Assembly (NCBI GenBank): GCA_029531795.1
Contig: JAPEIS010000010.1
Location: forward strand, 2,108,001-2,172,000
Reading direction: 5' to 3'
DNA from: Sclerotinia nivalis
Lineage: Eukaryota; Ascomycota; Leotiomycetes; Helotiales; Sclerotiniaceae
Length of the DNA stretch: 64,000 nucleotides
Translations under genes and position numbers: made by a program
Shown: positions 47,259 to 63,778 of the stretch, in pieces
How positions within the stretch are numbered: the stretch's first letter is position 1
Layout: every line of letters starts with the position of its first letter
Notes under the pieces: generated by a model
What the model saw: the letters and a program-made list of their open reading frames with translations, nothing else
The model's database searches: none
What the model was told of the DNA's origin: nothing

Positions 47259-47412
47259 GGCAAGCCTATAGAAATCGGTAAACGCGAGCTTCTCGGTCAC
47301 GGGAGATTGGACATGGCGCCATTTGTGGCTAACCGCAGCTATTGCTGTGTAGATATTGATGCATCTATGATGTTACCCTGTCTCGTTTCAAAGAGTAAGT
47401 CAGATATCATTG
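47259..47412 (+). pseudogene. PKS enoyl-reductase fragment (left piece, cut by inversion)
   Basis: The open translation reads PIEIGKRELLGHGRLDMAPF and then VANRSYCCVDIDASMM, the end part of a PKS-type enoyl reductase (FIEIGKRD...LDM.PF...SF..VD) of a highly reducing polyketide synthase. It is cut on the left by the 17-bp minisatellite and on the right near 47412, where the sequence changes to CorA-like DNA. Its natural continuation (YLEKGLIKPITIAKEF) starts at 62209 on the other strand. Confidence 0.8.
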
Positions 47413-48209
47413 TTTTGCAACTCCCTTGTTAATATAAAGATAGGATGATGACACGAGATATCCGTGACGAACTCCATATGCTAAGCTCTTTAGCAGAGGA
47501 CCAAGAATTTGTTTGGAAGCAGCCTTTTCCTACTAATGATTTGATGAACTTGAACTTTTACACACCTACCGATATTAAAAAGGATCTGGAAAACATGCTG
47601 AGGCTGACAAAACAGAAAACTATGTCAGTATTACCCGCTACAAGCTCTCCTTATGATTCTCGGCTAAATTGAAACAAAGATCAACACCCTTATCATTTGT
47701 GACGGGCGGAATTTGGTCGATTACAAGCTTACGACTCCACCAAACAATCTAACATTATTTTCATCTTCACTATCATCACTATTATTTTTGTAAGTCTTCA
47801 TTAGCAATTAGCAGGGGGAGGGTTACAAGCATAGCTAATGATCGTACTTATCAATTAAGCTCCCTCTATCATTTCTCACGTCTCTCTTCGCACTGGACGT
47901 ATCTGACTTTCCCCATGACTCCGGAAGCGTAAAGTACAAAGCATGGTGGCTATTCCCCATTCTTTGTAAGTAACTCTTGAGGTGGAGAAATTCCAACTGC
48001 TAATATAATGAGTAGTTGGTGCGACTGCACTTGTCTCTATTCCGACTATTATTTTGGCATGGAATGCAAATGCCCTCTCGGGAAAGTTTCGACCGCGAAA
48101 TAATATTGCCAGTGAAACTAGCGAAACATCTACGGGTACGCAAAACGCGAAAAGAGGTTTGGGGCATTTCCGACGGAGAGTTCAGAAACAGGATAAACAT
48201 GCTGTTTAA
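47413..48209 (+). pseudogene. CorA-like transporter gene, C-terminal half (cut by inversion)
   Basis: Three exons are visible: 47444-47789, 47860-47965 and 48016-48209 (introns 70 and 50 nt). The first encodes DIRDELHMLSSLAEDQEFVW, typical of the coiled region of fungal CorA/ZntB-like proteins. It continues through two in-frame TGA stops (47670-47672 and 47700-47702) into RAEFGRLQAYDSTKQSN and the first membrane span. The second exon holds LPLSFLTSLFALDVSDFP, and the third the second span (ATALVSIPTIILAWN). The N-terminal half is missing here; a matching half lies at 63778-62210 on the - strand. The stops and the truncation make it a pseudogene. Confidence 0.8.
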
Positions 48210-60863: not shown

Positions 60864-62209
60864 TCAATCGTTCTTGCTGTCTTCCGCAATAATCTGTAAT
60901 AACCTTTCGGACACATGTCCACCAAGCGCCTCCAAATTGCCCATACCCAGCATCTCCAGCACCGAAATATCAAACCCAAATGCCTGTTTCCACCACGCTC
61001 GCAATTCAATAGCAACCAGGGAGTCAAGTCCCAAATCCGCGAGCGCCAAGCTGGTGTTCGAGTCTCTATCATCCTTGAGTAGGAGACCAAACAGGCGTTT
61101 GCCAATCTCCTTCGCGGAGTAGATTGCCGCTTCGGGAGTTTTCAGGATCACAGGATCAGCACGAGCATTCGCGATGTAATTCTTGAGCTGGTCAGATGAT
61201 GCGGCCACTTCAACAGTATGTCCACTATCATTGTGATAGATCGCCATGCGGCGGTCCTTCTTCCAAACTGCGCGGTTTGCGGGGCTGCTTAGTGGGATGG
61301 TAGATTCGAGACCCAAAACAAAGACATTGGGGTCAAAAAATGTTGAGGTACATTTAGAGCTGTCAGGAATCTTGGCCATCATTGATAAAGCAATCGAGTC
61401 TAACATTTCCTGTTCGACCAGCGTCTTGAAACCTGTGAGGGTGGCTGTTTGGAGAAGCGAAGTGTTATCGGAAAGAAAACCGACGTCGGCAACGGGACCG
61501 ATATCGACAGAGGAGCAGGCGAGACCAAGATTGTTGCGGTACTGAACGAAGGCGTCGAGGAAGCTGTTTCCGGATGCGTAGTTGGCTTGACCTGGAAGAC
61601 CAATGACACAAGACATGGAGCTAAATAGGAGGAAGAAATCAAGCTTGATACCAGCAGTGGCGTGATGAAGGTTCCAAGTTCCCGTAACCTTTGGGCCTAA
61701 GCTGTAGTCCCATTGCTCCTTTGTTAGCCTAGCGAAATTCTCGTCGGCTTGGACGGCGCTTAATTGGAGGACACCTTTGAGAGGAGTACGGGCTTCGGCG
61801 ACGGCACGAGAGACGTCGTCTAACTCATTGATGTCCCCACAGACAGTGATAACATCAACATCCATGCTCTTCAGCTCGCCGATAAAGGCTTGATCGTTGT
61901 CGCTCTACGACGACTGAGATATATGAGGTTACGAGCACCGTGTTCTACCATATAGGTAGAAATTGCGCGACCTAAACCCCCAAGGCCACCAACCAAGAGG
62001 TAAGAACTTTCTGGGTCGAGCTGGAGCTTTTGAGGAGGGTTGAAAACCTCATTACTCAAGGTTAGTCGGCCATCGACATCGCGGATGCGGATACCGACAC
62101 GGCCAGTATGAGTGCCTGGCAGCAGGTACTTGAAAGCCTCGGCGACTGAGGAGGCGTCAAACTCCTTGGCAATAGTGATGGGCTTAATCAGACCTTTCTC
62201 AAGATAATC
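60864..62209 (-). pseudogene. PKS C-terminal part: end of ER, KR and ACP (right piece, cut by inversion)
   Basis: Starting at 62209 the translation YLEKGLIKPITIAKEFDASS continues the enoyl reductase. A ketoreductase follows (LLVGGLGGLGRAIS nucleotide-binding motif; LFSSMSCVIG and QANYASGNSFLDAF with catalytic Ser and Tyr), and finally an acyl-carrier domain with LADLGLDSLVAIELR (phosphopantetheine Ser). The frame shifts by one base near 61902-61908, after IYLSRR, breaking the KR. No KS, AT or DH domains are present in the window. This is the end of a highly reducing fungal PKS, now a non-functional remnant joined at its 5' side to CorA-like sequence. Confidence 0.85.
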
Positions 62210-63778
62210 AGGCGTCTCGGTTTCAGATGAGATAACATGATATCGGTTTGAAGATGCTGGTCTAGTCTCTGGTGAATTCGGGTCGACCTCTTCATCGGGT
62301 CCCTTTTGTTTTTCTGCTTCATGTAGATGCCGAAGGAAATCTCGGAACAGGGAATTTTCTTTGTCGGCCTACACTAGATTAGTTCAAACTATTAACATTC
62401 TCTCACGGAAGTGCAGTACAAACCACATCCCTGATTGACTCTCGAAATATCTCAATTGGCCCCTTCGATTTTCGTTGGGAATTTCCACAGAATGATCCAT
62501 GAAAGATCCGGTTGCAACCCCAAGAAGAAGTTCCATGACGGAATGGGCTGTTGTAGCGCGTTCAAACTGGCTTTTGGCCTCGCTGTAAAGTATGTTATTC
62601 AGCGTAGTTTGAAGGAGCCACCTGAGGATTTTTGATCAAGTTGAAGACTTTGTGAGGAATTCTGATTGAACCTTTCTGATGTGGCCGTAATGATTGTTTC
62701 TGAACATAAGTTAATTGGGTGACATGCAAATTTGTACTGGTATCATCAATCATACTCTCATCAATAATCCAAATCCAAAGCTGATTTACTATGAGAATCT
62801 TCTTCTTGGTCATTGTACCTTGGGTGGTTGTTAGTTTCAAACACCATCATTGTTTTAGTACTTAATTTACCCAGTGGCTTAGCTCCTTCAGGTTGTTTGC
62901 GTTTACTCTGTAAGAATTTCGACAGTACCTGATCATTGTCTCTCGCAGAGGTATTGACAATAGTTAGGTAGTAATACTGATCGAGAGTTACGGGCTCATG
63001 TATAGCTTCTCTCGAGTTGCGTTCGTTGGTAGATTCATCAAAAACTATGTGGTTTGCAGTGGTGGCAGATTTATCCTCCCCGGGAATATAGGTCCCTATA
63101 GTAAGATATGGCATCTATTAACCACAATGGTCAATATCTTGCATCATTATCTAGAGAGGAAATTGTGCAGCTACATACGTAGAGTGTCGTGCAAGAGCCA
63201 GTGTTGGATTCTCTTGGTACTTGGTTGCCACCTAAATCACTGGCCAGATGGTTGGTATAATGTTCCTCTTTGCGCTACCAAGGAAAAGATAGTGAGCTCT
63301 CAATACCGTCATGAACGTACTTCTACGACACATACCACAAATTGAGGTTTCATATAATAGCGTCCAGCGCCCGCTGCTAATGCAGTCCAGCTTCTGTTGA
63401 AGTGTTTCATTATAGCCATATGTTCTGTCTCAGAACGCTTTGAATCATGTGATAGCCGACTCACGAGGTTCCTAAACAAAAGAGGTCATTTATACGACTT
63501 ACTTGCATCAAATGTAACTATCGATTGTTCATTTTATCAGCGCGACTCGAAAGCTAGTGGTTTTGCGAAATAAAAAGTCTTACCTGATTGACTGGGAGAT
63601 GAATCCAACGAAGACGAAGGTCACGAGGAGTGTCATTCGAAGGTTCTGCGTTGTCATATTTGTCATGCTCAGATGATGTAGACTCCTCCGGGCGCAGAAA
63701 AGTAGAACTCTGAGCCCTAGTACCATTTGAATAAGGAGCATAGGCTCTCCTGTCTTGCCCAAGATGGGTTTGTATCAA
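62210..63778 (-). pseudogene. CorA-like transporter gene, N-terminal half (degenerate, cut by inversion)
   Basis: Several exons of the fungal CorA/ZntB-like group are recognisable. The order is RLRWIHLPVNQ (about 63605), MPYLTIGTYIPG (63114) with TLDQYYYLTIVNTSARDNDQ, VNQLWIWIIDESMI (about 62800-62760), and IEIFRESIRDV then, after a 55-nt intron (62423-62369), ADKENSLFRDFLRHLHEAEK through NRYHVISSETET. These are the N-terminal cytoplasmic parts of the family; no membrane span is here. Frames are broken (for example near 62450-62460 and after 62595). The 5' end abuts a LINE tail at 63779, so the true start is lost or outside. The C-terminal half lies at 47413-48209. Confidence 0.7.

What the first reader, a model, noticed from the sequence alone, without database searches (positions are those of the whole stretch)
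47400..62260. About 14.8-kb inversion with both breakpoints inside genes
A PKS enoyl-reductase fragment on + stops at about 47412 (ending ...KSDII) and its continuation (DYLEKGLIKPI) starts at 62209 on -. A CorA-like gene shows the mirror pattern: the N-terminal half ends at about 62210 on - (SSETET) and the C-terminal half begins just after 47413 on + (DIRDEL). Inverting 47413-62209 re-joins both genes in the right order and strand. A shared TG at the two junctions would fit end-joining. Seen: fragment positions, strands and motifs. Known: domain order of PKS (ER-KR-ACP) and of CorA-like proteins. Inferred: that one inversion made all four ends.
Basis: partly seen in the sequence, partly recalled or inferred. 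Interest (0 to 1): 0.85.

Follow-up and report, generated by a model that had tools for sequence, protein, structure and literature searches.

The report
Small inversion splitting two dead genes
In a fungus related to Sclerotinia, a 14.8-kb piece of chromosome appears to have been flipped, cutting two neighbouring genes (a polyketide-synthase gene and a CorA-type transporter gene) in half and swapping their ends; it is a clean example of an ordinary kind of mutation.

Summary
A 448-aa CorA-like protein of Monilinia vaccinii-corymbosi matches our minus strand with residues 1-248 and our plus strand, 14.8 kb away, with residues 252-448, at equal identity (81%, 80%). A Sclerotinia sclerotiorum polyketide synthase (95% identical over our KR-ACP) spans both PKS pieces; they abut at residues 1659/1660. 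Its locus tag directly precedes that of PSD2, the gene beside our PKS tail. Junctions: left about 47448-47453, right about 62216-62221. "KSKSDII" is a wrong frame running into a 49-nt intron (47395-47443). CorA lost 3-5 residues. No inverted repeat lies at the breakpoints; both junctions fall where the two proteins share a residue pair, so microhomology end-joining fits, but only 2 shared bases are certain. Both genes carry frame changes. The synthase is a remnant: no orthologue-level match was found for what precedes our ER piece, and a 17-bp tandem array grew inside the ER, 0.2 kb from the left junction. Reads and relatives' DNA could not be checked; in M. vaccinii-corymbosi CorA and PSD2 are not neighbours. 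Ordinary in kind, well resolved.

The parts
46892..47394 (+). PKS remnant, left piece: part of the enoyl-reductase domain (from residue 1592 of P0002; 1760-1843 of P0003), with frame changes near 46.93 and 47.37 kb, one stop near 47.26 kb and the tandem array inside it
   Evidence: tblastn and frame-tolerant alignment to relatives, this side alone
46982..47254 (.). 17-bp tandem array inside the PKS enoyl-reductase coding sequence; the two edge copies of a 13-mer (46987, 47242) lie 255 bp = 15 x 17 bp apart
   Evidence: Tandem Repeats Finder, 46982-47234; edge copies match the codons for K-C-V-A-P at 13 of 15 letters, a score reached by 3 plus-strand fifteen-mers in the window; a 32-base piece of it, up to 3 mismatches, was found only here in the genome
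47395..47443 (+).
   Evidence: the exon before it reads YDVTLSRFK(E), the exon after it E-M-M-T, as in P0002 (FKEMMTETL)
47448..47453 (.). Left inversion junction: PKS E-M-M-T on the left, CorA from M252/R254 on the right
47448..48206 (+). CorA-like gene, C-terminal part (residues 252-448 of P0001, including the two membrane helices), with introns and two frame changes
   Evidence: 153 of 192 aligned residues identical
47454..62215 (.). Inverted segment (about 14.76 kb) holding the CorA C part, a P-type cation ATPase, PSD2 and the PKS C-terminal part
   Evidence: orientation inferred from the four gene pieces
49657..53141 (+). P-type cation-transporting ATPase, two long open stretches, inside the inverted segment
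   Evidence: Pfam Cation_ATPase_N, E1-E2_ATPase, Cation_ATPase_C
54687..57704 (-). Phosphatidylserine decarboxylase (PSD2-like, C2 and PS_Dcarbxylase), inside the inverted segment; 94% identical to sscle_16g110400
60867..62219 (-). PKS remnant, right piece: end of ER, KR and ACP (residues 1660-2112 of P0002) with one frame change near 61.9 kb
   Evidence: 95% identical to P0002 over 346 residues
62216..62221 (.). Right inversion junction (letters encoding T-E on the minus strand, fitting both CorA T247-E248 and PKS T1659-E1660)
62216..63114 (-). CorA-like gene, N-terminal part (residues 1-248 of P0001), with three introns and at least two frame changes
   Evidence: 200 of 247 aligned residues identical

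Best explanation
A single inversion of about 14.76 kb (47.45 to 62.22 kb) happened in this species' lineage after it split from S. sclerotiorum. Before it, the order was desaturase - PKS (+) - PSD2 - cation ATPase - CorA (-). One double-strand break fell in the PKS at the E-M-M-T/E-T-L codons just after a short intron, the other in CorA between E248 and R254. The ends were joined crosswise, most likely by short-homology (microhomology) end-joining, with no residue lost from the PKS and 3-5 codons lost from CorA. Shown: the four pieces, their strands, their complementarity on intact relatives, the lack of longer inverted repeats at the breakpoints. Inferred: that it was one event, its direction and lineage, the pre-inversion place of CorA, the joining mechanism. 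The event ended CorA as a gene; the PKS is a remnant and may have been dead before.
For: CorA: P0001 residues 1-248 on - at 63114-62216 and 252-448 on + at 47448-48206, same identity, no second copy found of either half. PKS: P0002 (S. sclerotiorum) reads FKEMMTETLDYLEKG; our left piece ends FKE-intron-MMT and our right piece reads (T)E-T-P-D-Y-L-E-K-G. S. sclerotiorum PKS is sscle_16g110390 and PSD2 is sscle_16g110400, both listed with a longest contig of 1,419,421 bases; that these tags are neighbours is inferred from their numbering in tens. This matches PKS tail beside PSD2 here. The longest exact inverted match between the roughly 2-kb flanks is 13 bp, away from the junctions; 30 random pairs of stretches gave 11-16. 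In 200,000 simulated inversions 2 or more shared bases occur in 17%, 5 or more in 0.56%, 6 or more in 0.17%; 2 bp (AC) are seen directly, up to 6 (right) and 5 (left) if CorA used the same codons.
Against: In M. vaccinii-corymbosi CorA (DSL72_006706, contig 1,853,551) and PSD2 (DSL72_002643, contig 4,062,641) are not neighbours, so CorA at this locus before the inversion is inferred from the fragments alone; the CorA search gave no Sclerotinia or Botrytis relative (1 protein of 4 candidates). No relative's DNA was available, so strand and order of PSD2, ATPase and CorA in S. sclerotiorum were not seen. Microhomology beyond 2 bp rests on inferred codons, and 2 bp or more occurs by chance in one of six simulated inversions. 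No reads.
Confidence: 0.92

Rival explanations
1. Assembly artefact: the 14.8-kb segment was flipped when the contig was put together.
For: Reads cannot be examined with these tools.
Against: No N in the window; no inverted repeat at the breakpoints for an assembler to slip on (one search lists three inverted pairs in 44-64 kb, the one joining the left flank to the segment being 21 nt at 86% and 1.2 and 3 kb from the junctions); junction DNA was found once in the genome, without an alternative arrangement; 3-5 CorA residues are missing at the junction and both CorA halves carry their own frame changes, which a mere mis-join would not create.
Confidence: 0.03
2. Several events instead of one inversion (for example relocation of CorA into the PKS followed by another rearrangement, or separate losses).
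For: CorA lies away from PSD2 in M. vaccinii-corymbosi; the PKS has lost its 5' part by a further event.
Against: All four ends are reciprocal and complementary, with 0 PKS residues and 3-5 CorA residues missing; one inversion explains all four, any other path needs more steps.
Confidence: 0.05
3. Inversion by crossing-over between inverted repeats, as in the S. sclerotiorum MAT locus.
For: Such an inversion, flanked by 250-bp inverted repeats, is known in the genus (PMC3574095, abstract).
Against: The longest exact inverted match between the flanks is 13 bp and not at the junctions; the loss in CorA makes exact reversal unlikely.
Confidence: 0.03
4. Within the inversion reading: plain non-homologous end-joining with chance overlap, rather than microhomology-mediated joining.
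For: Only 2 shared bases are certain, and that is common by chance (17%).
Against: Both junctions fall at spots where the two proteins share a residue pair (T-E; M-T/M-I), which suggests longer shared DNA.
Confidence: 0.4

Closest known systems
Small intrachromosomal inversions behind mesosynteny in Dothideomycetes (Ohm et al. 2012, PMC3516569; passages seen)
   Same: Intrachromosomal inversion; the paper finds simple repeats over-represented within 500 bp of breakpoints in relatively closely related pairs, and here a 17-bp array lies about 0.2 kb from the left junction.
   Different: Here a Leotiomycete, near-base-level junctions inside two genes, a minisatellite rather than low-complexity repeat, one case.
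MAT-locus inversion of Sclerotinia sclerotiorum (Chitrampalam et al. 2013, PMC3574095; abstract and outline seen)
   Same: Same family, perhaps same genus; a short inversion with a breakpoint inside a gene (MAT1-1-1 truncated).
   Different: That one is 3.6 kb, flanked by 250-bp inverted repeats and recurs every meiotic generation; ours has no repeats, lost bases and decayed.
Reducing polyketide synthases related to SphB of the sphingofungin cluster (PMC10936153; passages seen)
   Same: P0008, named reducing polyketide synthase sphB of Aspergillus stella-maris by its source, is 69% identical to our KR-ACP.
   Different: Ours is a 5'-deleted remnant; no claim about its former product is made.

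Membership tests
Gene-breaking chromosomal inversion | Two genes each split into complementary, oppositely oriented pieces at the two ends of one segment | tested here: met
Gene-breaking chromosomal inversion | Relatives carry both genes uninterrupted | tested here: met
   P0001; P0002-P0006 and P0008, as predicted proteins
Gene-breaking chromosomal inversion | A relative shows the segment in the opposite orientation | tested here: inconclusive
   Only neighbouring locus tags of PKS and PSD2 in S. sclerotiorum; no relative's DNA held
Repeat-mediated inversion | Inverted repeats at the breakpoints | tested here: not met
Microhomology-mediated end-joining | Several shared bases at the junctions with small loss | tested here: inconclusive
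   2 bp certain, 5-6 bp if codons agree; CorA lost 3-5 residues
Highly reducing polyketide synthase (remnant) | ER-KR-ACP order at the C-terminus | tested here: met
Highly reducing polyketide synthase (remnant) | KS-AT-DH part present | tested here: not met
   43 ketosynthase matches in the genome, none on this contig; with P0003 the 43 matches other than our KR-ACP are 26-59% identical (21 of 124 candidates scored)
CorA-like transporter | Match to a protein carrying Pfam PF01544 | tested here: met
   P0001 carries PF01544; three of the window's own N pieces gave no Pfam family (C pieces not scanned) and the family search of the genome did not list this gene

The most novel reading that the evidence does not exclude
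The decaying PKS was a fragile site: a 17-bp stretch of its own codons amplified into an array 15 units long, and the array, or what made it, provoked the break 0.2 kb away that started the inversion. This would tie de novo minisatellite birth in a dead gene to an inversion breakpoint, extending the statistical link seen in Dothideomycetes to a single resolved case.
Probability: 0.12. Interest if true: 0.5.

Novelty: new member of a known kind. Interest (0 to 1): 0.3.

Why it matters
It is an inversion resolved to a few bases that broke two genes at once and left both to decay, useful as a case study for how inversions arise without repeats in Sclerotiniaceae and for how a secondary-metabolite gene disappears step by step (5' deletion, frame changes, array growth, inversion; their order is open). 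It does not change what is known about inversions.

Tried and rejected
First-reader junctions at 47413/62209 with shared TG: rejected after the PKS intron was recognised. My own notebook entry still held the TG and took an apparent abutment of the PKS pieces on solved structure 5bp4 as support; that was a coincidence of a wrong-frame reading, the ER match there was weak (E 0.39), and it is not used. A shuffled-unit test of the array's origin on the consensus unit gave nothing (score 6.0, reached by 208 of 300 shuffles); the edge copies, tested after that failure, do match (13 of 15 codon letters). Pfam on three CorA N pieces gave no family and the CorA family search of the genome did not list this gene. 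A CorA frame change near 62.35 kb depends on the splice acceptor chosen and is not counted. A narrow text pattern for the PKS junction residues hit 5 of 120 relatives and is not used as a count. Literature: six S. sclerotiorum locus tags searched, one paper, one passage seen, on a gene (Avo2) that I did not place here. The other paper searches (12 of 104 listed; 5 of 5; 8 of 12; 10 of 14) listed, by title and start of abstract, nothing on this inversion; that is no proof that it is not in print.

Full report
The window is bases 2,108,001-2,172,000 of contig C10 of a 50.3-Mb, 31-contig genome without a name. Its PSD2 is 94% identical to S. sclerotiorum and 89% to Botrytis cinerea, so it is most likely a Sclerotiniaceae fungus close to Sclerotinia; the species was not determined.

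What is there. On the plus strand a PKS enoyl-reductase piece runs from 46892 to about 47452 and is followed at once by the C-terminal part of a CorA-like gene (47448-48206). On the minus strand a CorA-like N-terminal part (63114 to 62216) is followed at once by the end of ER, KR and ACP of a PKS (62219 to 60867). Between them lie a P-type cation ATPase and PSD2; the Pfam scan finds KR and ACP in the right piece.

CorA test. One search with the first C-terminal exon gave a single protein at E <= 0.001 among 4 candidates: P0001, 448 aa, M. vaccinii-corymbosi, carrying PF01544. Compared with each side separately, P0001 residues 1-248 fall on the minus strand at 63114-62216 and residues 252-448 on the plus strand at 47448-48206. 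The programs carry the N match on to residue 253, but 249-253 (LLDMI) do not fit; that stretch is PKS. Identity is 200/247 and 153/192, so both halves look like one gene of one age. No second copy of either half was found in the genome.

PKS test. A search with the KR-ACP piece gave 981 proteins at E <= 1e-30 among 7990 scored candidates, 120 listed; the best is P0002, S. sclerotiorum sscle_16g110390, 95% identical. I aligned 6 of the 120. P0002 reads FKEMMTETLDYLEKG. Our left piece reads YDVTLSRFKE, with a 49-nt GTAAGT...TAG intron splitting the E codon, then M-M-T; our right piece reads T-E-T-P-D-Y-L-E-K-G. The pieces abut at residue 1659/1660 with no residue lost. Of 9 relatives looked at (P0002-P0010), 4 have MMTETL exactly (P0002, P0006-P0008), 3 a variant (P0003-P0005), and in 2 (P0009, P0010) the search string found nothing.

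The inversion itself stands.

Gene order elsewhere. In S. sclerotiorum PKS and PSD2 bear the tags sscle_16g110390 and sscle_16g110400, both listed with a contig of 1,419,421 bases. Taken as numbered in tens, they are neighbours, as the inversion predicts for the PKS tail and PSD2. Against a simple picture, CorA and PSD2 of M. vaccinii-corymbosi lie on contigs of different length with distant tags, so CorA's place beside the ATPase is known only from our fragments. No fungal DNA outside this genome was held, so order and strand in relatives were not seen.

Mechanism. There are no inverted repeats at the breakpoints: the longest exact inverted match between the roughly 2-kb flanks is 13 bp, against 11-16 in 30 random pairs of stretches; of three longer, imperfect inverted pairs in 44-64 kb, two lie around the right junction only and one joins the left flank (46229) to 59259, 1.2 and 3 kb from the junctions. 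At the right junction the letters for T-E fit CorA T247-E248 and PKS T1659-E1660; at the left junction M-T fits PKS M1658-T1659 and CorA M252-I253 in part. Two shared bases (AC) are certain; six and five would be shared if CorA used the same codons, which needs a relative's DNA. In 200,000 simulated inversions on this window 2 or more shared bases occur in 17%, 5 or more in 0.56%, 6 or more in 0.17%. CorA lost residues 249-251 at least, 249-253 at most. This fits microhomology end-joining after two breaks; plain end-joining is not excluded.

State of the genes. CorA has two frame changes in each half that do not depend on the splice sites chosen (a third in the N half does). The PKS right piece has one frame change near 61.9 kb; the left piece has two, a stop, and a tandem array. 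No ketosynthase match lies on this contig (43 matches in the genome). With the B. tulipae relative P0003 as query the genome gave 44 matches at E <= 1e-20: our KR-ACP at 87%, the other 43 at 26-59%. Only 21 of 124 candidates were scored and short pieces are missed at that cut-off (our own ER piece was not listed), so a large intact 5' part elsewhere is unlikely, small scraps are not excluded. The S. sclerotiorum model itself lacks 387 alignment columns at its start relative to 4 relatives, so decay or a wrong gene model there is possible. Whether the PKS died before or after the inversion is open.

The array. Edge copies at 46987 and 47242 carry the identical 13-mer AGTGTGTTGTGCC, 255 bp = 15 x 17 bp apart, and match the codons of K-C-V-A-P in 13 of 15 letters, a score that 3 plus-strand fifteen-mers of the window reach. 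An earlier test on the consensus unit was negative. I take it as most likely a tandem amplification of the PKS's own codons. A 32-base piece of it, with up to 3 mismatches, has 3 matches in the genome, all in the array. It lies about 0.2 kb from the left junction. Ohm et al. (PMC3516569, passages) report simple repeats over-represented within 500 bp of inversion breakpoints in relatively close Dothideomycetes pairs; one case proves no link.

Verdict: very likely a real, derived, repeat-free inversion of about 14.76 kb that split two genes; ordinary in kind.

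Noticed in passing
46982-47254: 17-bp tandem array inside the PKS enoyl-reductase, apparently amplified from the gene's own codons (edges exactly 15 units apart).
   Followed up: yes
63780-63895: About 113-bp dispersed repeat: 41 further matches in the genome at 78-85% identity, a lower bound (40 of 255 candidates scored), one of them at 6374-6486 of the window. Not identified.
   Followed up: no
16800-21737 (-): Two long open stretches in one frame separated by a single stop codon; the longer one matches RHS_repeat (E 8.6e-15), the other no Pfam family. 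Described only.
   Followed up: no
2724-6109: AT-rich stretch with open pieces matching endonuclease-reverse transcriptase and RNase H, probably a decayed retroelement.
   Followed up: no
PKS relatives P0002-P0008: Closest relatives of the PKS tail are scattered: Sclerotinia 95%, Botrytis 87%, Decorospora 84%, Metarhizium rileyi 79%, Aspergillus 69-71%, a patchy spread that could mean horizontal transfer or loss.
   Followed up: no
61874-62368 (-): The right junction is open in frame: a 165-codon stretch runs from a CorA exon into PKS ER/KR; a chance chimeric reading frame that ends after the frame change in KR.
   Followed up: partly
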